Below, piece after piece: positions 10,143 to 34,070 of a DNA stretch of 35,293 nt (its first letter is position 1; each line of letters opens with the position of its first letter). Both the position numbers and the translations under genes were made by a program. A model generated the notes under the pieces. The model was not told where the DNA came from and did no database searches. It was given only the letters and a program-made list of their open reading frames with translations. The stretch is from a virus. The stretch is taken from positions 1 through 35,293 of IMG/VR virus record IMGVR_UViG_3300047157_000149. The stretch is one strand, 5' to 3'.

Positions 10143-11921
10143 ATGGCTTACGACTACGATCCAGAAGATAAGTTCGGTTACAAGGACACGCTACCGGAAA
10201 GTCACCCTGAAAAGGTGATAACTGGCGTAGAGTTTGATGAAGAATTTAAAAAGATTGAGCAGGCTGTACAGGGCTTGCAAGACACCCTTGATGGAAAGCT
10301 GGATGTAATTACTGCTGGCTTGGTAATGGGTGGCACTTACAGCTTAGTGAGCAACATAGTTGTTCGCTCTCTTAAACCTGAGCTAACAGAAGGACAGCCT
10401 TTGCCAACACCGGCAGATTGTCCTGACACATTTCTTATCTGTATTGATGACGGCCCTTTTGAGGGCGAGGATTTAGTCCGATCTGATTGGATAGTCTCCT
10501 CTGAGCTTGAAGGTGCTTGGATACCTCTGGCTTACGCAAGACAAAAGACAGCGCCCGGAGACCCCGGAGCAGACGGAGAGGACGGCAAGGGCTGGACTTC
10601 CGGTAATTACAACCCCTCAAACGGCGTGGTGACCTTCTTATCTAATGATGGGCTAGGGTTTAACACTGATGATATACGCGGTGATGATGGCGATGATGGA
10701 GACAATGGAGAGAACGGCCCCGGCTGGACAGGTGGATCTTACAGTGATCAAACTGGCGTTGTTACCTTTACCTCAGATGACGGGCTAGGCTTTGCTACTG
10801 GTGATTTAAGAGGAGCAAACGGAACAAACGGCAATCACGGGATTAATGGTAAGGGCTGGACATCTGGCTCATACGATGAGCTTACTGGAATAGTCACGTT
10901 TACCAGTGATGACGGCCTTGAGTTCGCTACTTCTGACCTTAGAGGGGAAGATGGAAAGAATGGCACAAGTGCTTCTGGCACTGTCAATAGCGTTAACGGT
11001 AACTTCCCTGATCCTGATGGTGCGGTGTCACTTAATGCACTAGACGTTGGGGCTATAAGTCAGGAGACAGACCCAACAGTTCCAGCTTATGTAAAAGCAA
11101 TATCCCAAGCAGACATAACTAGATGGGACTCTGCTGGCGGCAGTGACTTTAGTGGCAACTACAATGACCTAACCAACAAGCCTACCATCCCAACTTACAC
11201 TAGCCAGTTAAGCAACAACTCAGGTTATATCACCACAGCTAACCTAGCTGGTTATTCAACTACAAGCCACAACCACAACGGCGTATACGCCCCTGCAAGC
11301 CACACACACTCATATCAAGCTGTCGGTTACTCATATAGTAAAGCTGAGAGTGACGCAAAGTATCAAGCGAAGGGGGGAGGTGGTGGAACCTCTGATCCCC
11401 TTGCACTCCAAAACGGTATTTCATTGGCGAGAGGTCAAGCGCAAGGCACAGAATACTTGACAAGAAATGTCCTTGAGATGATGTCAACTACCGGTGCTTT
11501 GCCAAATCACACAGGCTTTCTACTGGAATGCAGTATGGCTGGTGGATGGGGAGGACAGGCGGCTCTCTTTCGCATGGGTAATAACTGGGGTAAATACAAC
11601 ACTTCCCCTGCTCTCACTGTCAAAGAAGAAGGTTGCTATGCCCTCGACTTCCTTGCTACTTCAGATATAAAGCTGAAGGAAGATATTGTTACTGCAAAGT
11701 CAGATGTTATTAAGCAATTGCAGGGAAGGGAATGGAACTGGAAAGATGGTGGCAATAAAGGATCTGGTGTTATTGCCCAAGAGTTAGAGAAGGTTCTACC
11801 TCACCTAGTAACAGAGCAGGATGGCACGAAGCACGTTACTTATAGTGGCTTAACTGCTTACTTGATAGAGGCCGTTAAAGAGTTATCTGCAAGAGTTGAA
11901 GAGCTAGAGGGGGCAAAGTAA
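10143..11921 (+). CDS. Tail fibre or spike with S74 self-cleaving chaperone
   Basis: A 592-residue fibre. Residues about 149-270 hold three copies of a roughly 44-residue unit of type GxGWTxGxY then VTFTSDDGLGFATxDLRG, each joined by short collagen-like Gly-X-Y stretches. A histidine-rich segment near 375-395 (SHNHNGVYAPASHTHSY) resembles metal-binding HxH repeats of phage fibres. From about residue 507 (SDIKLKEDI) to the end is an intramolecular chaperone of peptidase family S74. This has the Ser-Lys motif at its N-edge, the central VIAQELEKVLP, and a C-terminal helical coiled coil. In this family the chaperone trimerises the fibre and then cuts itself off before the serine. Host recognition is the likely role. 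Confidence 0.82.
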   Translation: MAYDYDPEDKFGYKDTLPESHPEKVITGVEFDEEFKKIEQAVQGLQDTLDGKLDVITAGLVMGGTYSLVSNIVVRSLKPELTEGQPLPTPADCPDTFLICIDDGPFEGEDLVRSDWIVSSELEGAWIPLAYARQKTAPGDPGADGEDGKGWTSGNYNPSNGVVTFLSNDGLGFNTDDIRGDDGDDGDNGENGPGWTGGSYSDQTGVVTFTSDDGLGFATGDLRGANGTNGNHGINGKGWTSGSYDELTGIVTFTSDDGLEFATSDLRGEDGKNGTSASGTVNSVNGNFPDPDGAVSLNALDVGAISQETDPTVPAYVKAISQADITRWDSAGGSDFSGNYNDLTNKPTIPTYTSQLSNNSGYITTANLAGYSTTSHNHNGVYAPASHTHSYQAVGYSYSKAESDAKYQAKGGGGGTSDPLALQNGISLARGQAQGTEYLTRNVLEMMSTTGALPNHTGFLLECSMAGGWGGQAALFRMGNNWGKYNTSPALTVKEEGCYALDFLATSDIKLKEDIVTAKSDVIKQLQGREWNWKDGGNKGSGVIAQELEKVLPHLVTEQDGTKHVTYSGLTAYLIEAVKELSARVEELEGAK

Positions 11922-14768: not shown

Positions 14769-17150
14769 ATGAATGCCCTAGCCAATCCATTGACGGCAGA
14801 AAATAGCGGATTGGAAAATCAGCTAACTGCACCTCAAGGTAATCCTCGCCACTGGTATCAGCAAGGTGGTGATGGGAACTGGTACAACTCTAATGGTGAT
14901 CAGGTTTACTACTGGGTGCCACCTTCAGAGACTGATAGCACTATTTCAGGCGGTGGTGACACTCAAGGAATTGGGCAAGACCTTGGTGGCTACTATACAG
15001 AATCAGAGATTGCACAGGCATATAACGCTGATGAGGGCATGGGCTATCTTTCTGAGAAGGTTAGCTGGAATGACTACTGGGGTTTTATATCAGAGCGTCA
15101 AGGAGAGCTTCAAGCAGGCACCTTGGTTGATCCTATACAAGGTGAGTTTGCAAAGATAGCTCACCAGCAGGCACTAGAGAATACAGATCCAGATGCAGAG
15201 ATAGCCAATGATGGCAGAGATGAAGAGATTTATTACGGTCAGGTAGGAGCTAACACTCAGGGTTCTCAGACAGAGCAGATGAGTGCTTGGGTTAGCCAGA
15301 ACTCTGCGTTAATGAACAAGTATGGAATTGAAACATCCTTTCAAAACAATGACGGTGACTACTTTGTTTTTAACGGTAGTAGCTACACAAAAGCGTTTAA
15401 GGTTGATGATGGCTCTGGTCTATATAGTGACTATCTTGGAGTTATTGGCGAGGCTGTAAAAAGCTGGATGATGACAGGTGGCCTTGCCGCTCTTGCTGGT
15501 GGAGCAATGGGAGCTATAAGCGAAGGCATTGGGGCAATTTCTAATGCAGTTGGCTACAACAAAAACTGGCAGGGTTTTATTAGTGGCATTAACAATATGC
15601 CTGCTGGCCTTCAGGAGATCTTAGTAGACCTACCAAAATTTGCGGAAGCCATAGCAGGCGGTACTGTTACATGGGGTGGCCCTACTTCTGCCGCCGCCGC
15701 CGCAGGCGCCGAAGCCGCCGCAGGCGTATTATCTGGCACCAATGTCATAGTTAACTTAGCCAACACAGACCCCACCCTTAATAGCCCATATCAAGGAGAT
15801 GGAGAGGGTGTAGATCCTGATGGGAATCCTGTGTGGAATACCAAAAACCTCCCTTCTATATACAGCATTATTAATGGAGACATTGTTCATACAGAGTCTG
15901 GAACTGTGATGTCTGAAGGAAACTACAGTCCTGACAGAACACAGTATGTGTCCTTTCCTCCTTATGTAGATCCTGACAAGGATGATGAAGATGGTGGTGG
16001 TGCTGAATCGGCTAGTTCTGCTAGCGAGACTGCCGCTACTGCCGCCACTAACAGCACTACTTCCACTACGGCCAGCACAGTAGCTGGATCAAGCGGAGAT
16101 ATTGACAACAGTGGTGGCGATCCAAATACAACTGTACTGACTGACGCAAATGACCCAGACAAGACCAGCCCATATTTAAATGTCCCTGAGATATGGGATG
16201 AGAATCAAGAGTACGGTGATTGGGTAGTGGTCGAAAACACTGATGGCGGTATATGGGGTCAGTCTGGAAGATGGGTTGTTCGCAATACTAGAACCGGCCA
16301 ATGGCAAACAATTGATTGGGATGACAAGACGTTTGATAAGAAGGATGAGGTAGAGCTAGGAGTTAATCCGTGGATAGTGGCCTCTACTGCCAGCACCAAT
16401 ACTGAGACCAGTGGCTCAGAGGTTGATACATCAGCTAGCACTTCAACTACATCAACACCCACAGCAGTCAATCCTCCACCAATACCTAAGCCCGGAGATG
16501 CTTGTGAGCTTGCCGGTGGCGAGATAGGGGTAATAAACCCTGAAGGAATGTGTGTACCTAAAGTTGGCAGTAACAACCTGCCTACCTTTACTGGCACATG
16601 GCAAACCCCTAGCAATACATCTAGCAGTTCATCTAGCAGTTCATCTAGCAGTTCAGCCTCTACTACTGCCAGCACAACGGCTTCTACAACAGCTAGCACT
16701 ACAGCCTCCACCACTGCTACTGGCGGCCCTGTTGCAGGAAACCCATGTCAGCTAACTAATGGGGCTAACGGGGTTACTAATGGCGCTGGTATCTGTGTAG
16801 CTATAGCAGTAGGCGCGGCCTGTGTATTAGCCAATGGTCAGTCTGGAACTTTAGACCCAACTGGACAGTGTGTTGCAAACGGCGCTGATACTAGCGGAAC
16901 TGAGGGTAATGATGGCGTTGATAATGGCGGCAACGGGCCGGGCAGTAACGGTAATAATGGCCCCAGTGATGGCGGTAATGGCGGCCTTCCAAATGGCGGG
17001 ACTAAGAAGCCTGATGCTCGCAAGCCTTACGTTAACAAGTGGACAGGGTTAAATGAGGTAGATCCCGGCCCCGGATATGTTAAGAAGACCAAACAAAACG
17101 CCCCAGCTACTGGCCTATTGAGCGGAACATGGAGAGACTTAGAAAGATGA
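14769..17150 (+). CDS. Large mucin-like protein with Cys repeats
   Basis: A 793-residue low-complexity protein. The N-terminus has the aromatic type NPRHWYQQGGDGNWY seen in its neighbour. A Gly/Ala hydrophobic segment lies at about 233-256 (MMTGGLAALAGGAMGAIS), possibly a membrane or fusion-like helix. After an acidic linker comes a Ser/Ala/Thr tract (near 615-650) resembling mucin or stalk regions. Three copies of a Cys module of type GxxCxLxNGxxGxxNxxGxCV start near 575, 657 and 682, followed by an Asn/Gly-rich C-terminal region. No enzyme motif was found. It ends by ATGA overlap with the tail tube gene, so it is part of the virion operon. A long tail-associated fibre or an ejected protein is possible. 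Confidence 0.55.
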   Translation: MNALANPLTAENSGLENQLTAPQGNPRHWYQQGGDGNWYNSNGDQVYYWVPPSETDSTISGGGDTQGIGQDLGGYYTESEIAQAYNADEGMGYLSEKVSWNDYWGFISERQGELQAGTLVDPIQGEFAKIAHQQALENTDPDAEIANDGRDEEIYYGQVGANTQGSQTEQMSAWVSQNSALMNKYGIETSFQNNDGDYFVFNGSSYTKAFKVDDGSGLYSDYLGVIGEAVKSWMMTGGLAALAGGAMGAISEGIGAISNAVGYNKNWQGFISGINNMPAGLQEILVDLPKFAEAIAGGTVTWGGPTSAAAAAGAEAAAGVLSGTNVIVNLANTDPTLNSPYQGDGEGVDPDGNPVWNTKNLPSIYSIINGDIVHTESGTVMSEGNYSPDRTQYVSFPPYVDPDKDDEDGGGAESASSASETAATAATNSTTSTTASTVAGSSGDIDNSGGDPNTTVLTDANDPDKTSPYLNVPEIWDENQEYGDWVVVENTDGGIWGQSGRWVVRNTRTGQWQTIDWDDKTFDKKDEVELGVNPWIVASTASTNTETSGSEVDTSASTSTTSTPTAVNPPPIPKPGDACELAGGEIGVINPEGMCVPKVGSNNLPTFTGTWQTPSNTSSSSSSSSSSSSASTTASTTASTTASTTASTTATGGPVAGNPCQLTNGANGVTNGAGICVAIAVGAACVLANGQSGTLDPTGQCVANGADTSGTEGNDGVDNGGNGPGSNGNNGPSDGGNGGLPNGGTKKPDARKPYVNKWTGLNEVDPGPGYVKKTKQNAPATGLLSGTWRDLER
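16620..16655 (+). repeat. Three tandem 12-bp repeats in the Ser/Thr tract
   Basis: Three perfect copies of TCTAGCAGTTCA occur at 16620-16631, 16632-16643 and 16644-16655, encoding Ser-Ser-Ser-Ser units. They are followed to about 16720 by degenerate repeats encoding Ala-Ser-Thr-Thr. The exact copies look recent and could change number by slippage, altering stalk length. Confidence 0.85.
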
Positions 17151-17782
17151 ATTACTTACAGCTAGTAAATGGCGTATTGACTCGGCTCAGAGAGCCAGTG
17201 GTTACTACTGTCAGGACACAAGATGATCCTGTAGTTAACCTTGTTAAGCAGTTTGTTAATGATGCTAAGCGGCAGGTTGAAAGCGCACATGCGTGGAATG
17301 CGACTAGAAAGGTGTGGTCATTTGGCACTGAGGAGAATCAAGCTTCCTATGTGCTAGATGAAACAGATGGAGGGTGTCGGGTTACGGCAGTCTGGAATGA
17401 CACAAACCGCTTAGATCAGTGGGATCTAACAGTAATCCTTGGACACAGAGCATCTTTTGGAAATCCATTCCGATATGCTTTTGAAGGAACCAATGATTCT
17501 GGTGATGTCATGCTCAGGCTAGATCCTATACCGAATGACGTTTTTCCCATGCAGATACTGGGGCATAGGAACCTGCCAGATTTTGATTTAGATACAGACA
17601 TAAACAGACTCCCAGATCAGCCCGTCCTATACTATGCTCTTGCACTAGCGGCTAGAGAAAGAGGAGAGGTTGGAGGTCAAACGGCAACGGAGCTTTTCAA
17701 CATGGCTCAGCAGTATATATCTGATGCCATTGCTCTTGATGCTAACTTGAGTGAGACAGAACATACTTGGGCGGTAGTCTAA
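17147..17782 (+). CDS. Tail tubular protein A / head-tail adaptor
   Basis: A 211-residue protein resembling T7 gp11-type tail tubular protein A, which forms the adaptor ring under the portal. The N-terminus MNYLQLVNGVLTRLREP and the following VKQFVNDAKRQVESAHAWN match the helical start typical of this family, and the length is close to T7 gp11 (196). The ATG at 17147 is chosen over an upstream in-frame ATG because it overlaps the previous stop as ATGA and has GGAGAG upstream. The next gene begins inside its stop and looks like the tube B protein, the usual A-B order. Confidence 0.75.
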   Translation: MNYLQLVNGVLTRLREPVVTTVRTQDDPVVNLVKQFVNDAKRQVESAHAWNATRKVWSFGTEENQASYVLDETDGGCRVTAVWNDTNRLDQWDLTVILGHRASFGNPFRYAFEGTNDSGDVMLRLDPIPNDVFPMQILGHRNLPDFDLDTDINRLPDQPVLYYALALAARERGEVGGQTATELFNMAQQYISDAIALDANLSETEHTWAVV

Positions 17783-19551: not shown

Positions 19552-20951
19552 GCTTAACCCCAATTTCTACATCCCACCTTAGCTATGTACAGCCAACACC
19601 AGCAGGCACTCCATTTGGCAATGCCGTTCAGAATTTTGGGGGTTGGCTTGGCAGTAACGCTCAAGGGCTGGGGTATGCGGCCAATGCTGTTGGTGCTGGG
19701 CTGTCTATTGACCAAGCACTGAGTGAAGCTAGCAGGATTAGCAACCTTGGTACTTATCTTAATGATTGGTCTACTCAGCAGGGCAATCTACTAGATACCA
19801 ACTCTCAGTTTAAAGGGTATGGGATTACCACTGGCCTTGGAACAACCACTGCTGGTCTTGATGAAAACGGTGCTTTCAATGCCACGTTCGGGGCTAGTCC
19901 TGACATTAACCTGAATGCTCAGGGCAATGCTTACAGAACTGCTGGCAATAGTCAGATGGGATCAGCCGCTAACTACTATGGCAATGCGGCAGGTATGGTT
20001 AACGGTGTTGACTATATGAACTCAAGCAATCAGGCCATTAGTAACTCACTGGCTGATCCGCGATTAAGACAGCAAGAAATCTACGATCAGATGATGGCTA
20101 TTCAGAACCCTGAGCTAGACCGTCAGCAAGCAATGCAACAAGCCCAAGAGTACCAGATGGGCAGGGGTGGCATCAGAGGCTCACAGTACGGCGGCACAGC
20201 AGAAGATGCGGCTATGGCTAGAGCTAGGGTACAGGGTTCTAATGAGGCTGTGATGGCGGCTATGAAGCAGGCTGATGCAGAGCGCACAATGTTTAGTCAG
20301 ATGGGCGCTAACTATGGTGGCTTGTACAACCAGCAAACTGGCAATCTAGCTCAGATTGGTCAGGGCATGGGTCAGCTAGGAGATCAGAGAACACAGCTAG
20401 GCATGGAGATGGAGAAGCTGAAGTACCTGCCAATGGATATGCAACAGAAGATCTTGCAGACCATGAACAACTCTCTGGATCAGGCTCAGACAGGCCAGCT
20501 AACAGGTCAGGGATACTTGAGCCAGATGCTACTGGGTGGCATGGGCAACAACACCAACCTTCAGAAGATCTCCAGCGAACTGCGCGGCAATGTATACAAC
20601 GCCGTACTCAACAACCTTGGTGGCGCTACTGGATCGGATGGTTCGTCTACCAGTGGATTCTCTGGGTTGCTTAGTGGAATTGCTGGTGGCCTTGGCACAC
20701 TTGGTGGCTGGCTTGGTGGCACAGTGAAACCGGGAACTACCTCAGACGTTAGGCTGAAGCAGAACATTACTCCTGCCGAGAAGATAGGTGACATCCAGTA
20801 TTACAACTGGGATTGGACTGAAGATGCCAAGGCAATGGGCATCAATGATCCTACTTACGGTGTCCTTGCTCAAGAGATGCTGACACAGCGGCCAGAAGCT
20901 GTAATGGTAGGTGACCACGGTTACCTCATGGTTGATTACTCAAGGATTTAG
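19548..20951 (+). CDS. Ejection-type virion protein with S74-like C-terminus
   Basis: A 467-residue protein immediately after the tail tube genes. It is glycine/glutamine-rich and helical, with a central QMGRGGIRGSQYGGTAEDAA motif of a kind frequent in podovirus proteins encoded before internal virion proteins. From residue 399 (SDVRLKQNITP) a short S74-like chaperone domain follows, containing YNWDW, YGVLAQEML and ending LMVDYSRI, about 69 residues. It keeps the Ser and Lys of the self-cleavage motif but lacks the C-terminal coiled-coil helices of the full domain in the fibre at 10143. Role in tail-tip assembly or DNA ejection is inferred. Confidence 0.65.
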   Translation: MSLTPISTSHLSYVQPTPAGTPFGNAVQNFGGWLGSNAQGLGYAANAVGAGLSIDQALSEASRISNLGTYLNDWSTQQGNLLDTNSQFKGYGITTGLGTTTAGLDENGAFNATFGASPDINLNAQGNAYRTAGNSQMGSAANYYGNAAGMVNGVDYMNSSNQAISNSLADPRLRQQEIYDQMMAIQNPELDRQQAMQQAQEYQMGRGGIRGSQYGGTAEDAAMARARVQGSNEAVMAAMKQADAERTMFSQMGANYGGLYNQQTGNLAQIGQGMGQLGDQRTQLGMEMEKLKYLPMDMQQKILQTMNNSLDQAQTGQLTGQGYLSQMLLGGMGNNTNLQKISSELRGNVYNAVLNNLGGATGSDGSSTSGFSGLLSGIAGGLGTLGGWLGGTVKPGTTSDVRLKQNITPAEKIGDIQYYNWDWTEDAKAMGINDPTYGVLAQEMLTQRPEAVMVGDHGYLMVDYSRI

Positions 20952-20961
20952 GAGATACACA

Positions 20962-22776
20962 ATGGCAGGACGTAATGCGTCAGCAAGATTAACTGGCCTG
21001 TTTTCAAACATGCAACAAGGGCTGATGGATGAGGGTCAAGCAGGCAATCAGTTTGTAGATACATTCAGGCGGTCAATGGCTCCCAAGGTAGATAATGAGG
21101 ACTCTGAAAGCATCATGGCTTACTCAGAGTGGGCGCGGCGTAACGGCTATGAGGAAGAGGCTAGGCAGTACATGGCCCTGTCACTTGCACAACAACAAAG
21201 ACAAGACAAAGAAAAGGAGAGGCTGGAGGCAGAAGCCAAGGACGCGGCAAGAGCAAAGGCAGTCTCCCTGTCAGCCAATACATTTAGTGATGGGTCTGCT
21301 GGAGCAGATGGCGGCGACCCGACTCAACTTGAATACAATATTAAAAAGGTAAAGGAGCAGATAGCAGAGGCAGGTGCTAAAGGAGACTTGCCGTTACTTG
21401 GACAGCTTAGGACGGATCTTAAAGAGCTTACAGGTATGCGGTCTAACGCAGTTTCTAATAAGGTTGTTAAGCAGGCTCAGGCAATTCCTTATTACGAGGG
21501 GCTTCTCAAAGATTATCCTGAAGGAGATCCAAGAAGAGAGCCGTTGCAGAAAGCATTGCGATACCTAAAGAACGATCCAGCTATATCCGAAGCATATAAG
21601 CAGATAGAGGCTAAAGATCTAGCTCTAAAAGGCTCCCGTCTACAGGTTGAAGGTCTTGAGTATTCTGCTGGTCGCCGACCATTTCAAGAAATACTAGATG
21701 AACTTCAAAGGCAAAACGCCCAGTACACACTGGCCGCTAAAGAGGCACAGGCAATAGCAACCAGAGATATAAGAACCGCTAATGGAGTAGCCGCCTCTAA
21801 TATAAGTGCTGGGCAGTGGATTTTAACTGAAGAGCAGACAAAAGGAATGTCTGGTGCCGCCCAAGCAGAAGCCAGAAAGATCATGGGTGATGAGTTTAAA
21901 AGACGGGAGGACATGGACAAGGCTAGATCAGAGGCAACTGTGGGTACATCAACACTAGCCGCCGCCGAGAAACTTGCGCTGACTAATCCGGGCATTGCCA
22001 CAATGCTTGCTGACTATAAAACCTCCAAGGCAAACGCATTAACTTTAGGCGATCAAAAGAGAACTGCTACTCAATTAACAGCCGCAGTGCATAATCTTCA
22101 GCTAGCAAACGCAGACAACAATATTGTTATGGAGTCTGCTGTTGGCGGTCAAATGAAAGCAATGATAGATCTAGGCTCACAATCTAGCCTCTTTGAAGGT
22201 GAGGATTATGTTGATGTAATGAGTGACCCTGACGCTTATCTCTCTATGCGTAAAGATGTTGCCAAGCTTGCTACTAGTCAGGGCTTAACACCGGAAGATC
22301 TTAACTCTGAAACCATATTAGAATTAATGGATGTAGCGGCAGGTCAGTCCACTGAAAAAGCTTGGATTAATGCCTATGATAAGGCTAGTCGCAGAAGAAG
22401 AGCCGTTGAAAAAGAGTGGAGGACGGCAATTAGCGAACCTCAAGATGAGTGGATTGCATCCGTTGTTGCTAGAAACAGCGGAAAGACTGCTTGGGATGAT
22501 AATGAGATTTACGAAGAGGCTGAAAACTATTATGAGGACGCCGTTAATCAGGTAAGGGCTCTTGTTTTACAGCCAAGATCATTGCAGATACAGACACTAA
22601 GCAGGATGATGAATCAAGACACGGACTCTCTCTTCAGGGATAGGGAGTTTGGCCCACCACATAATCCAATGATAATGCCAAGGATGTTTTCAATGGAAGA
22701 ATATGAGGCAATGCTGGAGCTTGCAATGTCTGGGAGAAAGATCACCTATCAAGACTTCATAGCGGATCAAGAATGA
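20962..22776 (+). CDS. Putative internal virion / DNA-ejection protein 1
   Basis: A 604-residue, predominantly helical protein rich in Ala, Gln, Lys and Glu with long coiled-coil stretches and no membrane segment or catalytic motif. The ATG at 20962 is preceded by AGGAG at seven bases and follows the previous stop by ten bases; an upstream in-frame ATG inside the preceding gene has no such site. Position after the tube proteins and before two very large proteins parallels the order of T7 gp14-15-16 ejection genes, although clear sequence similarity cannot be established by eye. It overlaps the next gene by ATGA. Confidence 0.55.
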   Translation: MAGRNASARLTGLFSNMQQGLMDEGQAGNQFVDTFRRSMAPKVDNEDSESIMAYSEWARRNGYEEEARQYMALSLAQQQRQDKEKERLEAEAKDAARAKAVSLSANTFSDGSAGADGGDPTQLEYNIKKVKEQIAEAGAKGDLPLLGQLRTDLKELTGMRSNAVSNKVVKQAQAIPYYEGLLKDYPEGDPRREPLQKALRYLKNDPAISEAYKQIEAKDLALKGSRLQVEGLEYSAGRRPFQEILDELQRQNAQYTLAAKEAQAIATRDIRTANGVAASNISAGQWILTEEQTKGMSGAAQAEARKIMGDEFKRREDMDKARSEATVGTSTLAAAEKLALTNPGIATMLADYKTSKANALTLGDQKRTATQLTAAVHNLQLANADNNIVMESAVGGQMKAMIDLGSQSSLFEGEDYVDVMSDPDAYLSMRKDVAKLATSQGLTPEDLNSETILELMDVAAGQSTEKAWINAYDKASRRRRAVEKEWRTAISEPQDEWIASVVARNSGKTAWDDNEIYEEAENYYEDAVNQVRALVLQPRSLQIQTLSRMMNQDTDSLFRDREFGPPHNPMIMPRMFSMEEYEAMLELAMSGRKITYQDFIADQE

Positions 22777-25559
22777 GATTTAATCCTAAAGCTAGAGATA
22801 TTGATCTTCCTGATCTTCCTCTCTCTGACATTGCGAGAGGGGAGCAGAAGGCTAAGAAATACAGGGATGACAAGGCAGAGGGTGGACGCAATGCGTTGCT
22901 CTCTGGCGCTAGTCTAGGTCTGTTTGACAATGCCGCCGCACTGATTGACTCATTTGAATCTGGAGACTATGAGCTAGAGCTTCTGAGAAGGAAGAGAAAT
23001 CAGGAGCAATTCTCAGACCTTAACCCTACTGCCTCACTTATTATGGAACTGCTTGGCTCTGTGCCATCAGGAACAGCCACCTTCTCTGGTATCAAATCTG
23101 TTCTAACAGCGGGAAGTAAGATAGGGAAAACTAGTGACCTTATAGCTGGTCAAGGTAAGGCTATATATAAAACCAAGAAGGGTAAGTTGCTTGATGTTGA
23201 GATCAAAGGAACGAGTCCTAGCGGGAACGTCATAGTTAGTGATGGGGTTAAAGAGTTTGCCGTCACAAGAAAGGCGCTCACTGCTAGGACATCTATTAAA
23301 GGAGACACTCCCAGCAATGCCCTAGTCGGTTCAATAGAGGGAGCGGCGTGGGGGTTTGCCTCTGGTGAAGATGGAGACAGAGCGCAGTCTGCTGTGATTG
23401 GTGGGATGCTGGGCCTGTCTTTAGGTACTGCACTAGATGTATTTACTCGTCCCGGATCTGCTGGGAATCTAGTTGGAAACAGAACGCCTGTTGATAACGT
23501 AATAGACAAAGACCTGATTGACCTGTCTGAAGATTTCGTAGCCAAATCAAGAGAAGTTAATGACCAATCTCTTAGGGGTGTTCAGAGTTTAGAAGAAGCT
23601 GATAGGGCATTGATGGGGCCAACCAGACCAAGGCAGTCATACCTAGACCCCTATGAAAATGCTGTTGGCTCTAATCTTTACAGCCAGAAAGAGGGTATCT
23701 GGAGATCTGTTAGAGAGGGCTACGATAAGTGGCTAACTGGTACATCAGATTACCTCATGCGCCGCATCAGTCCTCAGATAGGGGCGCTGGCACAAAGGGC
23801 TGACGAGACAGCAATCAGGAAAATTGGCAATGACGTTGTTGAGTACGTCGATCCCATTACTGACGTGCTAAAGCTAGAGCTTGATGACAGACAATTCAAA
23901 GGAATGCTACTTGATTACGCAAAGGGGTCGGCAACAAAGACTGATCTGTTTAGGTATGTGTCTACGCGTTTGGGTAAAGAACAAGCCCAAGCACTTATTC
24001 GGCATCTCCAGTGGAGCGATCGTAAAAACTTTGAGCATATCAAGAGAGTTACTGGTCGCTCTTATCAGTTTAAATCCTACCTTCATACTCAGAGGATAAA
24101 GAAGAAACGCAACGACACGACCGAACCTGACTTTGATTACCCAACAGATCCCGGCCTTGAGAAAAGAAGCAGGGCTGACTTTAAAAATAATGGTGTTGAA
24201 CCTGATGACTACCAACCAATACTAGCCACTAACCTGCGAAGAATAATGAACAATGAAAGACTTGTTCAGCTAGCAGATAAGTTTGGAATGCCTAGAAGTG
24301 CTGGGATGAAAGAGCCTGCTGAGTTCTTTAGGGCTATGCAGAAGCACTTTGTATCAAAGGGGATTGACCCAGATATAGCAAAGCGTGGCGTTGAAGCCAT
24401 CAGAGAAAACTTGATAGGCCAAACAAGATCACCTAACCAATGGTTGCAGGCTCTCAACTCATTTGGATATGCCACAACCTTGGCTGGCCCCAAGTCTGCT
24501 TTGCTTAACCTTCAAGATCCAATGGTAGGTTCAGTCAAGTACGGGTTGGGCAATGTTCTGAAGGGAATGACACAGCCTAATTACAGTGTCACTGAGCGCG
24601 GCATCCGTCAGAATGTTGGCGAATTCCTTAACGCATACAACGACGCTTTTGCTGACCAGAGAACAGTAGGAAAGCGTGTTGCTGATGTAATGAGGAACAC
24701 TACAGATTGGTTAATGAAAGGCTCTGGCTTTGCCGCCGCTGATTCTATTGGTAAGGGCTGGACAATTAAAGGAATACTGAACCACGCTAATGAAGCGGCC
24801 TCAAGGCCCGGAGGATTAGAAGATGCTTGGGGATTCTATTTTACAAAGGCAGAGCTAGGTCAGATAAAGAGACAGTTGAAGGAGCATGGCACAAACTTTG
24901 ACAGGTACTCAGGGAAGGGTGGAGAGTTGTTAGAGGAGCTTGCCTTTGCAGGGCTGGGCCAACAGCAGTTGATCTCTGGTATGGGCAGGCCGGTAGGCTG
25001 GGCTAGGCATCCTAATGCTAGACCTTTGTGGGCATTACGAGGGTTTGCTATTAAACAGCAGGCTTTATTGATGAGAGAGATTGTCGATAACATTAGAGTC
25101 GGCAAGATGGATGAGGCGCTGAAGTACTTTACAAGATATGTTGCTTTAGCCGGTGGCTCATTTGGACTACTCAATGAGGCTAGGCAGTGGATGTTTGGTG
25201 ATGGCGAGGCAACAATAGAAGGGGTAGTTCAAGGCACTGCCGACCAAGTTGTATCTGCCCTAACACTTAACACCATAGGGCTTAATGACTATCAGTATGG
25301 CTCTCTAATGCAGAATGGATTGTTCTACACAATGGCTCAGGGTTCTGTGCCTATTGCCGCTGACAGACCATATGAAGTAGTTAAGGGGATATATGATTCT
25401 GTTCAAGCCCCACAGGGTCAGACATTAGCCCCATTAATAAAGCAGGTTCCATTCATTAACCAGCCACTCAACTTGATTCAGAACCTTGGTGAAGACAATT
25501 TAATTCCCCAACCGTTAGAGAATTTAGAGCGTCAGATTAGACCGGGAGAGCAACGCTAA
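22773..25559 (+). CDS. Putative internal virion / DNA-ejection protein 2
   Basis: A 928-residue protein, among the longest here. Residues 42-60 (LLSGASLGLFDNAAALIDS) and 84-100 (NPTASLIMELLGSVPSG) form a glycine/alanine pattern common near the N-terminus of very large phage internal or polyvalent proteins. Later segments such as GYATTLAGPKSALLNLQDP are also typical of those proteins. Hydrophobic helices near 785-800 could interact with membrane. No lytic transglycosylase or peptidase motif was recognised. It lies between an Ala-rich helical protein and an ADP-ribosyltransferase-like protein, both coupled by short overlaps, so co-packaging and ejection are plausible. Confidence 0.58.
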   Translation: MRFNPKARDIDLPDLPLSDIARGEQKAKKYRDDKAEGGRNALLSGASLGLFDNAAALIDSFESGDYELELLRRKRNQEQFSDLNPTASLIMELLGSVPSGTATFSGIKSVLTAGSKIGKTSDLIAGQGKAIYKTKKGKLLDVEIKGTSPSGNVIVSDGVKEFAVTRKALTARTSIKGDTPSNALVGSIEGAAWGFASGEDGDRAQSAVIGGMLGLSLGTALDVFTRPGSAGNLVGNRTPVDNVIDKDLIDLSEDFVAKSREVNDQSLRGVQSLEEADRALMGPTRPRQSYLDPYENAVGSNLYSQKEGIWRSVREGYDKWLTGTSDYLMRRISPQIGALAQRADETAIRKIGNDVVEYVDPITDVLKLELDDRQFKGMLLDYAKGSATKTDLFRYVSTRLGKEQAQALIRHLQWSDRKNFEHIKRVTGRSYQFKSYLHTQRIKKKRNDTTEPDFDYPTDPGLEKRSRADFKNNGVEPDDYQPILATNLRRIMNNERLVQLADKFGMPRSAGMKEPAEFFRAMQKHFVSKGIDPDIAKRGVEAIRENLIGQTRSPNQWLQALNSFGYATTLAGPKSALLNLQDPMVGSVKYGLGNVLKGMTQPNYSVTERGIRQNVGEFLNAYNDAFADQRTVGKRVADVMRNTTDWLMKGSGFAAADSIGKGWTIKGILNHANEAASRPGGLEDAWGFYFTKAELGQIKRQLKEHGTNFDRYSGKGGELLEELAFAGLGQQQLISGMGRPVGWARHPNARPLWALRGFAIKQQALLMREIVDNIRVGKMDEALKYFTRYVALAGGSFGLLNEARQWMFGDGEATIEGVVQGTADQVVSALTLNTIGLNDYQYGSLMQNGLFYTMAQGSVPIAADRPYEVVKGIYDSVQAPQGQTLAPLIKQVPFINQPLNLIQNLGEDNLIPQPLENLERQIRPGEQR

Positions 25560-27664
25560 TGGGAAAGAGGAATTACAGCATCCTTGGTTATGATCGTCAG
25601 TTAAATAACCACATCATTAATGATAAGGGCGAACCTGTAGTAGAGGTATGGCATGGCGGCCATCCTAAGATTGAAAAGTTTGATATGTCTAAGATGGGTA
25701 CTGGGGAAGGCGCTCAAGCATACAGTCCCGGTCTCTATAATGCAGAGCGTAAAGGTGTTGCGGGTGATTACAGAGATGCAATTACTGCTAGGCTTAAAGC
25801 TCAGATGGCGCGTGAGTATGGTCTCGTCACTATAGGTGGCACAACAATTCCTGTCTCAGCAAGAAACTGGATAAGGATAGAAGATACAGGGAAGGCTAGC
25901 AAAGAAGATATATATGAATCACTGACAAGCCATATCAAGTTTGAAAGGGACATGTATGAAAATAATTCTCAGGCGTTTGATTGGGATAGCGCAAGGGAAA
26001 GAATGGAAGCGGATAGATTAGAAATTCAGCGTGACAAGGATATGGAAAGGCTGGCTTCTGGAGAAGCGAGCTATGAAGAAGAGATGCTTTATTTGCATGG
26101 GCCTGATTGGGAGAATGCAGTTGGTTATGAAGTGCCTGATGAAAGCGAATTTAATATCAATCCGGGCGGCTTCTTTATGCAAGACCCAGCAAGCGGCGAA
26201 GATGTATATGTCAGGATAGAAGACAACAAAACATTTTACGATGATCCCACCTCTGGTGAAGAAGTAGTCACTGAGTATCCTGTAGGAACCAGCCATGATT
26301 TTATGGAGTTTGACCATGAGGCGTCTGCTTGGTTAGGCGATGCAGAAGATTCCTTTTGGATTACTGATGACCCTAAATTAGGGGAGGTAGGTGAGTCTTA
26401 TCAATTAGCCTATGAGTTTGCTTACCTTGGTGAAGAAATACATCCCATGGGGGGCAAGAGAAGATTCGCGTTTATGAAACCAACTGATGTCGCACCTAAT
26501 AATCCTTTTGGGCCGACGCCAGTTAGCACTAGGAGGATGAACAGGGAAGGCACCATCATTGACGAGCTATCTCCTGCGTATTACGCACACATGAAAGAAG
26601 GACATGAAGAGCTTGCAAACGCGACGGCTTCAAACATGAACGATGTTGCGGGAGAGATTGCTAACGGAAGCCTGCCTGTTTGGGATCAGCAATACATGCC
26701 ATTACCAGACTCCTCAAACATGAGAGGAGGGCTATATAAAAATCACCTGCATGTTAATCCTGATGAGCTTCTTGATTGGTTTGAGCCTATTGGGAAACAG
26801 CCAAAGAAATTACAAGACATAATCAGGAAGTATTGGGATAGCAAAGACCATGATTTATCTGTATCCCGTGGGAGATTCTTTCCTCCAGACGACGACAATT
26901 TCACTGATGACGTCCGTCCTATAACTAAAGAAGAATTGTGGCAAGACAATCTACAAATGACCGGCCAAGAATTTTTCTCAAAGTTTAGTAAGAGATTTGG
27001 AGGGCGGCACCAGTTTAGAGAAGACATGGACGCTGTTGGAATGCCGGGTGTTATCTATCAGGACTACACCAGAAATAGCGGGAGAGGTGATCCGACGTAC
27101 AACATTGTTATGTACTCAGATGATCCAATAGAAATTATAGAGCGTGGTGCGGCCACTGCTCCAATGCTGGCATCTGTGTTTGGCATCACGTCTGCGGTAC
27201 TTGCATCAGCAGTAGCTGGTAAGAAGGCTGGGTTCTTTGACACTGTACTAGATCCAGACATTGCAGAAAGATTCCCCATGCCTGAAGAACCAGACAATAG
27301 AACTGGGCTAGATAAAGTATTAGACCATGAAGGATTCTTAACTCCTTATCTTGCAGATGCACTGCAATCAGATACTGCTCAGCAAATCTGGAACCACCCA
27401 GTGACTGAGCATGTCAGGGGAAACCTATCAGATGTTATGAATCAGATGGAGATACCCGCCCGAGCCTTAGCTTCTGGCTGGGAGGGTCTCTACAATCTAT
27501 CTCAAGACATGCCTGCATCTGAAACGCTTGGCGGTATGTGGGATAGATTAAACACTCCCCTTGATGAAACCGCATATGAAGCAGGTCAGGCTACCATGAA
27601 AGCTACAGGTAGCCCTGTACTGGGGGCTGGCGCAAACGTCGGCCTTCTCTTAATGGGGCCATAG
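25559..27664 (+). CDS. ART-PolyVal-like ADP-ribosyltransferase, split by insertion
   Basis: A 701-residue protein. Residues 29-72 match the start of ART-PolyVal domains: EVWHGGHPKIEKFDMSKMG, then GTGEGAQAY and GLYNAE with H32 and Y60 in the usual places. The second half resumes only near 390: GGLYKNHLHVNPDELLDWFE, then AVGMPGVIYQDYTR and PTYNIVMYSDDPIEII to about 530. About 300 acidic residues lie between the two halves. A hydrophobic helix at about 533-560 could be membrane-spanning, followed by a helical tail. The family transfers ADP-ribose from NAD+ to proteins. Being last in the ejection-protein run suggests delivery with the DNA, as T4 Alt is, but that is inference. An acidic catalytic residue was not assigned with confidence. 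Confidence 0.72.
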   Translation: MGKRNYSILGYDRQLNNHIINDKGEPVVEVWHGGHPKIEKFDMSKMGTGEGAQAYSPGLYNAERKGVAGDYRDAITARLKAQMAREYGLVTIGGTTIPVSARNWIRIEDTGKASKEDIYESLTSHIKFERDMYENNSQAFDWDSARERMEADRLEIQRDKDMERLASGEASYEEEMLYLHGPDWENAVGYEVPDESEFNINPGGFFMQDPASGEDVYVRIEDNKTFYDDPTSGEEVVTEYPVGTSHDFMEFDHEASAWLGDAEDSFWITDDPKLGEVGESYQLAYEFAYLGEEIHPMGGKRRFAFMKPTDVAPNNPFGPTPVSTRRMNREGTIIDELSPAYYAHMKEGHEELANATASNMNDVAGEIANGSLPVWDQQYMPLPDSSNMRGGLYKNHLHVNPDELLDWFEPIGKQPKKLQDIIRKYWDSKDHDLSVSRGRFFPPDDDNFTDDVRPITKEELWQDNLQMTGQEFFSKFSKRFGGRHQFREDMDAVGMPGVIYQDYTRNSGRGDPTYNIVMYSDDPIEIIERGAATAPMLASVFGITSAVLASAVAGKKAGFFDTVLDPDIAERFPMPEEPDNRTGLDKVLDHEGFLTPYLADALQSDTAQQIWNHPVTEHVRGNLSDVMNQMEIPARALASGWEGLYNLSQDMPASETLGGMWDRLNTPLDETAYEAGQATMKATGSPVLGAGANVGLLLMGP

Positions 27665-28126: not shown

Positions 28127-28318
28127 TTAATGACCCTCTGCGTGGTTAACTCTAAAACCTATGGCGTGTAACTTAATCAGCCGCTCAAGGTTCTTGTCGG
28201 TGTGTCCATCTTTATAGTTAATGGTCAGTGTCATGAGCGCATCTCCATCAGCGTTATAGAAATGCCATGTCTTTATAGTTTCATCTGGTTCATAGGTCAG
28301 TTCGCTAAGGTTATCCAT
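28127..28318 (-). CDS. Small protein, unknown function
   Basis: Encodes 63 residues with alternating hydrophobic strands (WHFYNADGDALMTLTINY) and a C-terminal helix. Its ATG overlaps the TGA of the HNH gene by one base (TGATG), so translation is likely coupled. The predicted beta-beta-alpha outline is compatible with a small inhibitor or adaptor but I recognise no family. It lies between the HNH nuclease and an acidic small protein within the recombination operon. Confidence 0.6.
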   Translation of the reverse strand: MDNLSELTYEPDETIKTWHFYNADGDALMTLTINYKDGHTDKNLERLIKLHAIGFRVNHAEGH

Positions 28319-28701
28319 CAGTTGTAACTCACTATCTTGTAACTGGGATCTGCCTCTGCCGCCCTGACTTCTTCCCTGTAGTGCTTGCTAATCTCTGCTC
28401 TCAGTTCTTTGTTAGTCTTCATGATTGCACTCGCCTTCTCTCTTAGTATGTCCATGTGTCCTTCTCCCCACAGCTTTGTTAGCCAATCAGTAAATGCTAC
28501 TGGGTTCTCTCCAAAGTAACGGTGATGATACCGACACAGGCACAAAGCATTATCCATACTCCACCTTGTAGACTTCCTAGCCCTGCCATATATATGGGCT
28601 GAGTCAGTACCCTCCTGCCCACAATACTGGCACAGGTGCTTGTCTCTATGCCTGACTGCCTTGCTAAACCAGATGTCTGCTTGATCTCTTTTGACTCCCA
28701 T
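28318..28701 (-). CDS. HNH nuclease, phage recombination type
   Basis: A 127-residue HNH nuclease. A first zinc knuckle at residues 19-22 (CQYC) is followed by DSAHIYGR with D29 and H31, then RWSMDNALCLCRYHHRYF, which supplies the central Asn and the later Cys-x-Cys and His-His of the zinc/nuclease centre. This arrangement (CxxC, AHIxGR, NxLCLCxxHH) is seen in phage NinG/Rap-like and related HNH proteins that act on recombination or packaging intermediates. It directly follows the NinB-like gene, as ninB and ninG group in lambda. TAATG and TGATG overlaps bind it to both neighbours. Confidence 0.78.
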   Translation of the reverse strand: MGVKRDQADIWFSKAVRHRDKHLCQYCGQEGTDSAHIYGRARKSTRWSMDNALCLCRYHHRYFGENPVAFTDWLTKLWGEGHMDILREKASAIMKTNKELRAEISKHYREEVRAAEADPSYKIVSYN

Positions 28702-33171: not shown

Positions 33172-33216
33172 CTGAACCGGATGCGCCCCCGAAGAATGAG
33201 GGCGCAACGGATTCAG
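33172..33216 (-). repeat. Intercistronic hairpin after ardC
   Basis: Arms of 17 bases (33172-33188 and 33200-33216) pair with three mismatches; the inner seven pairs (TGCGCCC/GGGCGCA) are perfect. In the minus-strand mRNA the 5' arm contains the TGA stop of ardC and the 3' arm ends a few bases before GAGGAG of the next gene. There is no T-run, so it is not an ordinary terminator; RNA processing or translation control is possible. Confidence 0.8.
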
Positions 33217-34070
33217 GCTGCTTCCTTCATCTTCACTGACACTGCCTCATTGCAATACCTAAGCACCTTGTTAGCCGCAGTACTGGCCTTGATGAACTTG
33301 TTACTGTCATCCTTTAATAGCTTGGCCCAATGCCCTAAGTAACTAGCATGATGCTCAATGTCATAGTCAATGCCATGCTCAGCACACAAGAACACTGCTG
33401 ATAACTCTGCTACTAGCTCTTCAAAAGCATACTCAGGTGTACCAAACCTACCTGTCATGTCACGCTTGAGTCTTTTCTCATGCCCGGTACTGTGTGCTAA
33501 CTCATGAAACATGGTGGATAGGTAACCCTTTACTGTCTTGAACTGGCACAGGTCAGGCATTGCCACCTCATCTGTTAGTGGCCTGTAACTAGGCTCGCCT
33601 TCCCGCATCTTCACACCCAGTGCTACTTGTAACTGAGTAGCTGGTGTTAGATCAGCACCATCATGTACAAACACCTCATCTTTAACATCCTCAATGCCCT
33701 CGAACTGCTCTATGTTGGCGTTGTTAGTAACAATCATGAATGGATGTTGGGTAATGTCACCTGCATCATTGCGTTCCATCTTGCTAAAAAAGTAAATGGG
33801 AAATGACTTACGCACATCATCTCCCTTCTCACCCTTGAACTGGAACCCAAGCTTGATTGCCTTCTTGACTGAGATGTATCGGTTAGATGTATACCCATAC
33901 TTCTCGTTGTGTACCCAACAGTTAACAGCATTGCCAATACCATATTGATAATCACTCAGATGGTTCTTTGGCATACCACCCTTAGAGATCCACCCCTTTT
34001 GCCAAGGGGCAGTACCATTTTCAATGGCCTCTAGTATTGGCCTAACAACTAGGTCTGACTTAGCTGACAT
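33213..34070 (-). CDS. ardC: ArdC-like antirestriction protein with metallopeptidase domain
   Basis: A 285-residue protein. The N-terminal half (residues 6-130) has the ArdC ssDNA-binding pattern: IENGTAPWQKGW, then GIGNAVNCW and VKKAIKLGFQFKGEKG. The second half is a zincin-like domain with HELAH at 189-193 (FHELAHSTGH) and a downstream glutamate in FEELVAELSA (218-222). ArdC proteins protect entering single-stranded DNA from host restriction and are widespread on plasmids and phages. The gene lies in the right-hand operon, likely early, overlapping the preceding gene by 11 bases, with GGGAGGT before the ATG. Intact key residues argue for activity. Confidence 0.88.
   Translation of the reverse strand: MSAKSDLVVRPILEAIENGTAPWQKGWISKGGMPKNHLSDYQYGIGNAVNCWVHNEKYGYTSNRYISVKKAIKLGFQFKGEKGDDVRKSFPIYFFSKMERNDAGDITQHPFMIVTNNANIEQFEGIEDVKDEVFVHDGADLTPATQLQVALGVKMREGEPSYRPLTDEVAMPDLCQFKTVKGYLSTMFHELAHSTGHEKRLKRDMTGRFGTPEYAFEELVAELSAVFLCAEHGIDYDIEHHASYLGHWAKLLKDDSNKFIKASTAANKVLRYCNEAVSVKMKEAA

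What the first reader, a model, noticed from the sequence alone, without database searches (positions are those of the whole stretch)
25559..27664. ADP-ribosyltransferase fold split by a 300-residue insertion, encoded last in the ejection-protein run
N-terminal HG, GTGEGAQ and GLY motifs at 32-60 and the complementary part (LLDWFE, GMPGVIYQDYTR, NIVMYSDD at 404-520) are typical of ART-PolyVal domains but are about 330 residues apart, where these parts are usually adjacent. The gene sits after two candidate internal virion proteins and has a C-terminal hydrophobic helix. It may be an effector that is packaged and ejected into the host, comparable in idea to T4 Alt.
Basis: partly seen in the sequence, partly recalled or inferred. 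Interest (0 to 1): 0.75.

Follow-up and report, generated by a model that had tools for sequence, protein, structure and literature searches.

The report
Phage ADP-ribosyltransferase with large insertion
The last gene of a phage's DNA-ejection gene run encodes a real ADP-ribosyltransferase-fold protein of a known phage family (ART-PolyVal), unusual in that about 240 extra residues are inserted into one loop; it is probably carried in the particle and delivered into the bacterium, but that step is inferred and not shown.

Summary
25559-27664 (+) is an intact 701-aa gene. A profile built from 56 viral relatives, without the window, finds both halves of one ADP-ribosyltransferase (ART) domain in order: residues 25-134 (E=1e-19) and 377-529 (E=2e-17); the best of 2000 shuffles scored 5.4 bits. 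Two AlphaFold2 models (window; a 43%-identical relative, L005) bring the halves together into one ART fold. It matches cyanophage A4 pre-ejectosome gp27 (Z 10.2-10.4), diphtheria toxin, tankyrase and PARPs.

One correction: the halves are not normally adjacent. The usual GEGAQ-to-LLDW distance is about 116 residues (66-205); here it is 355, so about 240 residues are extra. The linker varies across the family and this is the extreme. The insert has no relative beyond L005. T4 Alt belongs to another ART clade.

The ejection-run context is supported: the upstream 928-aa protein shares PHROG 5880 with phage phiGT1's annotated injection protein, and the ART start overlaps its stop codon. Syntenic relatives L003/L004/L006 lack the ART there, so it is accessory.

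NAD-site residues H32, Y60, Y71 and family-invariant N515 are present, so activity is plausible. Packaging, ejection and target are inferred. Verdict: new variant of a known kind.

The parts
25559..27664 (+). Whole gene: 701-aa ART-PolyVal-family protein; ATG overlaps the stop codon of the upstream 928-aa gene by one base (TAATG)
25631..25807 (+). N-terminal half of the ART domain (residues 25-83): strand with H32, GTGEGAQ, strand with Y60, helix 65-83 with Y71
   Evidence: HMM i-E 1.2e-19; AF2 pLDDT about 90 for most of it
25808..26722 (+). Long linker/insertion (residues 84-388), about 240 residues beyond the family norm: hairpin and helices 101-180, then a low-confidence beta part
   Evidence: no relatives other than L005
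26201..26359 (+). Small beta-meander plus helix module inside the insertion (residues 215-267); its L005 counterpart (230-286) is predicted better, pLDDT about 80 over the strands
   Evidence: generic fold matches only, best Z 6.0 over 66 residues
26723..27148 (+). C-terminal half of the ART domain (residues 389-530): GLYKN strand, LLDWFEPI, GVIYQD strand, YNIVM strand, IEIIER strand
   Evidence: HMM i-E 1.6e-17; AF2 pLDDT about 90-95 for most of it
25652..25654 (+). H32, first NAD-site residue of the H-Y class (H in 118 of 119 relatives)
25736..25738 (+). Y60, second NAD-site residue (121 of 121, but the search pattern required it); Y71 at 25769-25771 is 11 residues later (120 of 120)
27101..27103 (+). 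N515 at the start of strand 5, where E stands in PARPs/diphtheria toxin (109 of 109 relatives have N); D502 at 27062-27064 (106 of 110)
   Evidence: equivalence to E is inference
27158..27217 (+). Hydrophobic helix (residues 534-553; peak mean KD 1.82 over 536-554), followed by about 148 mostly helical low-confidence residues
22773..25559 (+). 928-aa putative injection (ejection) protein; N-terminus matches PHROG 5880, shared with phiGT1_19
20911..22776 (+). 621-aa candidate internal virion protein, by position only
   Evidence: synteny in L003-L006
19548..20951 (+). 467-aa protein with C-terminal Peptidase_S74 chaperone domain; PHROG 4287 (named DNA ejection protein)
17129..17782 (+). SU10-type head-tail adaptor that opens the conserved tail/ejection block
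   Evidence: Pfam PF24175 E=1.4e-11; synteny

Best explanation
The gene encodes a phage accessory effector of the ART-PolyVal family. Residues 25-83 and 389-530 fold together into one NAD-binding ART domain. About 240 extra residues, a helical section plus a small beta-meander-and-helix module, are looped out between the helix after strand 2 and strand 3. The gene is translationally coupled to the last ejection protein, so the protein is most likely made late, put into the head with the ejection proteins, passed into the cell with the DNA, and there uses NAD to modify a host macromolecule (or to consume NAD) at the start of infection. The insert most likely chooses the target or docks the enzyme to the ejection proteins. 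Shown by computation: the split ART fold, the retained NAD-site residues, the gene order and the accessory distribution. Inferred: packaging, ejection, catalysis, target and the role of the insert.
For: Both halves match an independent family profile in order. Two models give one ART fold spanning both halves; top matches are A4 pre-ejectosome gp27 (Z 10.2/10.4), then tankyrase 2, diphtheria toxin, PARP1/2 and RES toxins; ART-PolyVal proteins in BFVD. H32, Y60, Y71, D502, R505 and N515 are kept. EP928 shares PHROG 5880 with phiGT1's annotated injection protein. Start overlaps the EP928 stop in both window and L005. The precedent 9k3a_B is A4L_27, a pre-ejectosome component. Literature: about 44% of phage ARTs lie in contexts suggesting packaging (PMC9503650); polyvalent proteins are predicted to be injected (PMC5512222). 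The ART is less conserved than EP928 (43% versus 71% identity) and absent after EP928 in L003/L004/L006, as expected of an effector.
Against: No direct evidence of packaging or activity. Window and L005 depart at positions the family usually keeps: HGS/T to HGG, YF to YN/YM, LDWD to LDWF. The strand-5 'FD' aspartate, which may be the D of the published H-Y-D set, is S520 in the window (D518 in L005). Foldseek against PDB gave nothing significant for the whole window model; the ART matches come from re-alignment, and apart from A4 their Z (5.5-7.4) is in the range a chance arrangement can reach. The A4 ART-like domain is not detectable by the family profile (hhalign 8.6% probability).
Confidence: 0.55

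Rival explanations
1. The ART fold serves as a structural or anchoring part of the ejection apparatus and is not catalytic: the protein is an ejectosome component that happens to use an ART scaffold, with the insert making contacts.
For: The nearest solved structure is an ART-like domain in the A4 pre-ejectosome. Departures at HGS, YF, LDWD and FD. Long insert and helical tail.
Against: H32, Y60 and Y71, the NAD-pocket residues, and N515 are all kept in both members. Relatives L003/L004/L006 keep the ejection block without the ART after it, so it is not an obligatory structural part.
Confidence: 0.2
2. An active ART made late inside the infected cell and acting there (host takeover, lysis timing, blocking of superinfecting phages or NAD depletion), without being packaged.
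For: It is near the end of the late operon and an accessory gene; ART-fold NADases exist (RES toxins appear among the matches, Z 6.2), and N in the acid's place occurs in RES ARTs, which split NAD (PMC9503650).
Against: Coupled by overlapping start/stop to an ejection-protein gene in both members; many family members lie near terminase (17 loci by the window's TerL alone) or inside large proteins of over 1000 aa (35 of 120 ORFs).
Confidence: 0.2
3. Degenerate, inactive remnant: the insertion broke the domain and the gene is decaying.
For: Several family-typical residues are changed; accessory distribution.
Against: Two members 43% identical both keep a full-length 701-aa frame and all invariant residues; ART halves are 47% and 55% identical against 36% for the linker; both model as a well-formed core.
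Confidence: 0.05

Closest known systems
ART-PolyVal (Pfam PF18760; ARTs of phage and plasmid polyvalent proteins, Tox-ART-HYD2 clade)
   Same: Both halves of the domain, order of motifs, all invariant residues; phage late-gene context
   Different: About 240 extra residues in the linker; HGG, YN/M, LDWF and S520 in place of usual residues; just below the Pfam cut-off
phiGT1_5 (Sulfitobacter phage phiGT1, QLB38217.1)
   Same: Nearest annotated phage relative by sequence; free-standing ART-PolyVal protein of a podovirus
   Different: 387 aa with the ordinary short linker; encoded between portal and scaffold, not after the ejection proteins
Cyanophage A4 gp27 (A4L_27, PDB 9k3a chain B)
   Same: Best structural match (Z 10.2/10.4); ART-like motifs at 1424-1593; solved as part of a podovirus pre-ejectosome
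   Different: Domain of a 1717-aa protein; not detectable by the ART-PolyVal profile
T4 Alt
   Same: Idea only: an ART packaged in the head and injected with the DNA
   Different: R-S-E active site and a different ART clade (PMC5512222, PMC9503650)
PARPs / diphtheria toxin catalytic domain
   Same: H-Y-class ART fold, Z about 6.4-7.4; two tyrosines 11 residues apart (their spacing from my own knowledge)
   Different: N515 where these have the catalytic glutamate; low sequence identity (8-19%)

Membership tests
ART-PolyVal (PF18760) | Significant match of the whole domain to the family | tested here: met
   Own profile of 56 members: 131.7 bits over two stretches. Pfam's own model: 29.3 bits against a cut-off of 31.2, N-terminal part only; the compact member phiGT1_5 also scores just below it (30.0)
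ART-PolyVal (PF18760) | H in strand 1 and Y in strand 2 | tested here: met
   H32 in strand 26-34, Y60 in strand 59-62
ART-PolyVal (PF18760) | D in strand 5 (as published for this family, PMC5512222) | tested here: inconclusive
   Which D is meant is not certain. 'FD' column is S520 in the window, D518 in L005, D in 75 of 108 relatives; N515 is invariant (109 of 109); D502 after strand 4 is kept
ART superfamily, H-Y-[EDQ] clade | Two halves form one split-sheet ART fold | tested here: met
   Two AF2 models; structural matches spanning both halves to A4 gp27, tankyrase, DT and PARPs
ART superfamily, H-Y-[EDQ] clade | NAD-dependent ADP-ribosyl transfer or NAD cleavage | not testable with these tools
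   Needs purified protein
T4 Alt (R-S-E clade) | R-S-E active site | tested here: not met
   First site residue is H32 and second is Y60, aligned with the H-Y family throughout
Virion-packaged, ejected effector | Present in the particle and delivered into the host | not testable with these tools
   Only context: coupled to and following a PHROG 5880 injection protein
Polyvalent protein (multi-domain) | Several unrelated effector domains in one polypeptide | tested here: inconclusive
   No other Pfam domain found in the insert or the tail; the insert's small module has no identified family

The most novel reading that the evidence does not exclude
The insertion is a docking module that fixes the ART to the ejection proteins, so that the enzyme works as part of the ejectosome at the cell envelope during DNA entry, modifying a host protein there before any phage gene is expressed.
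Probability: 0.12. Interest if true: 0.65.

Novelty: new variant of a known kind. Interest (0 to 1): 0.38.

Why it matters
If packaged and active, it would be a podovirus with an enzyme delivered alongside its ejection proteins, with an insert that could tell what such enzymes are aimed at. It also links the sequence family ART-PolyVal by fold with a solved ejectosome protein (cyanophage A4 gp27), which makes it testable whether ART domains in ejectosomes are enzymes or structural parts. The finding itself extends a known family rather than opening a new kind.

Tried and rejected
Relatives of the whole protein or the insert: apart from L005, none in viral contigs, genome contigs or plasmids, and in phage records only the ART part of phiGT1; pattern prefilters were narrow, so distant relatives of the insert are not excluded. 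Pfam on the insert and the tail alone: nothing convincing. PDB by sequence: no real match for P0001 or the family alignment (the gp41 hits are chance matches). Foldseek PDB with the full window model: no significant match, attributed to length and low-confidence parts. Matches of the insert's small module to phiKZ Dip (Z 6.0, 66 residues) and to Ego3/profilin/capping protein (Z about 4-5): treated as a generic beta-meander-plus-helix and not used. Comparison of the insert with ART members that have longer linkers (L040, L051, L094): no similarity. Idea that the MAKR* stub after EP928 in L003/L004/L006 is a remnant of the ART start: undecided, since the next gene in L005 also starts MAK. Neither the virion mass spectrometry table of phiGT1 (in a supplement) nor the A4 structure paper could be read here. 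EP928 and the 621-aa protein had no solved relatives by sequence. Promoter and terminator scans around the gene were at chance level.

Full report
The window is a whole IMG/VR virus record of 35,293 bases. Genes from 598 to 27,885 run on the + strand and include terminase, portal, major capsid protein, an SU10-type adaptor and the block considered here; the rest is mostly small genes on the - strand.

Observation. Pfam sees only the N-terminal part, at 29.3 bits against a cut-off of 31.2, and PHROG 873 (a 1277-position head-and-packaging family named endolysin) matches in two stretches at E=5.7e-10. To test both halves fairly I collected viral contigs with the family motif GEGAQxYGxxGLY, which the window itself does not carry (it has YSPGLY), and built a profile from 56 of them. 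The window protein matches that profile twice and in order: residues 25-134 (68.4 bits) and 377-529 (61.5 bits). Tested alone, the C-terminal part scores 60.8 bits; the best of 2000 shuffles of it scored 5.4.

How unusual the split is. They are not: GEGAQ to LLDW spans 66-205 residues in 56 relatives, median 116. The window has 355. Aligning 117 members to the profile, the excess linker has a median of 4 residues; apart from L005 (+250) only L051 (+121), L040 (+91) and L094 (+76) exceed +60. So the position tolerates insertions and the window and L005 are the extreme. Their inserts resemble each other (linker 36% identical) and nothing else found. The ART halves are 47% and 55% identical.

Structure. 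AlphaFold2 on the window protein (44-sequence alignment, no templates) gave a core at pLDDT about 90 from strands 26-34, 59-62, 391-397, 497-501, 514-518 and 524-529; insert helices at 101-180 at about 62-80; the beta part and the tail mostly lower. The relative from L005, residues 1-554, gave the same core and a better-predicted three-strand-plus-helix module at 230-286. For both models the best structural match, spanning both halves, is chain B of the cyanophage A4 pre-ejectosome (Z 10.2 over 165 residues and 10.4 over 163), ahead of diphtheria toxin, tankyrase 2, PARP1/2 and RES-type ARTs at Z 5.5-7.4. Those lower values alone could be a common arrangement; that nearly all of the top rows are ARTs makes chance unlikely. 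In BFVD the best named matches are ART-PolyVal and polyvalent-protein entries; the top E-values are 6e-7 and 5e-9. Chain B is A4L_27, 1717 aa; it carries LYHGT at 1424, GSGTYF at 1444 and TTLVINP at 1587, yet our family profile does not detect it, so it is a cousin by fold and not shown to be a family member.

Active site. Over the relatives, H32 is H in 118 of 119, Y71 is Y in 120 of 120, N515 is N in 109 of 109, D502 is D in 106 of 110 and R505 is R in 108 of 108; the window keeps all. Y60 is kept, but its conservation was imposed by the search pattern. The 'FD' aspartate is D in 75 of 108, S520 in the window and D518 in L005. Window and L005 both have HGG for HGS/T, N or M for F61, and LDWF for LDWD (112 of 114 have D there). 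From my own knowledge, PARP1 has H862, Y896, Y907 and E988 and diphtheria toxin H21, Y54, Y65 and E148; the 11-residue spacing of the two tyrosines is the same here (60 and 71), and N515 falls where the glutamate stands. PMC5512222 describes this family as H-Y-D with D in strand 5; which residue that is could not be settled. N in place of the acid does not exclude activity: RES ARTs have N there and split NAD (PMC9503650). Whether the product is a modified macromolecule or free ADP-ribose cannot be told.

Context. L003, L004, L005 and L006 share the block adaptor, 594-aa protein, S74-domain protein, 621-aa protein and 928-aa protein in that order. The N-terminus of the 928-aa protein matches PHROG 5880 (E=1e-9), as does phiGT1_19 (E=1e-17), which its depositors call an internal virion/injection protein with weak similarity to P22 gene 16 injection protein. 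The S74 protein matches PHROG 4287, named DNA ejection protein, and phiGT1_17 over the S74 part. So 'ejection-protein run' is supported by profile for the 928-aa protein, by family name for the S74 protein, and by position only for the 621-aa protein. The ART start overlaps the stop of the 928-aa gene (TAATG) in window and L005. In L003, L004 and L006 that stop is followed by a four-codon ORF and then an unrelated small gene; those contigs end soon after, so an ART elsewhere in those genomes is not excluded. The ART gene's base composition matches its neighbours. EP928 is 71% identical between window and L005, the ART 43%.

Interpretation. An ART domain at the end of an ejection operon, translationally coupled, accessory and less conserved than its neighbour fits a packaged effector. 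Phage ARTs are often in such contexts, and polyvalent-protein ARTs are predicted to be injected (PMC5512222, PMC9503650); the A4 pre-ejectosome shows that an ART-like domain can sit among ejection proteins in a particle. Against this, nothing here shows packaging or activity. T4 Alt is a parallel in idea only, since it belongs to the R-S-E clade. The insert's role is unknown; target choice or docking are the likeliest guesses.

Verdict. The protein is a member of a known family with an extreme insertion: a new variant of a known kind, of moderate interest.

Noticed in passing
window 33213-34070 (-): ArdC-type antirestriction protein: ArdcN (PF08401, E=2e-15) plus MPTase-PolyVal metallopeptidase (PF18818, E=8e-37). 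A second gene of polyvalent-protein type in the same genome.
   Followed up: no
window 28318-28701 (-): Small HNH endonuclease-like protein (PF13391, E=8e-6).
   Followed up: no
window 10143-11921 (+): Tail-fibre-type protein with a strong C-terminal match to fibre/baseplate families, lying directly after the major capsid gene.
   Followed up: no
L003:7994-8182, L006:12834-13022: In ART-lacking relatives the 928-aa gene is followed by a four-codon ORF (MAKR*) and a 62-aa protein with CPKC and CARC pairs, possibly a zinc ribbon.
   Followed up: partly
L133:20116-25269 (-), A4L_27 residues 1424-1593: The cyanophage A4 pre-ejectosome protein carries ART-like motifs although Pfam and the ART-PolyVal profile do not detect them.
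   Followed up: partly
L012, L037, L085, L070 (ART fragments): Other family members carry short inserts at other loops of the ART domain, some looking like small beta-beta-alpha modules; the family seems generally tolerant of loop insertions.
   Followed up: no
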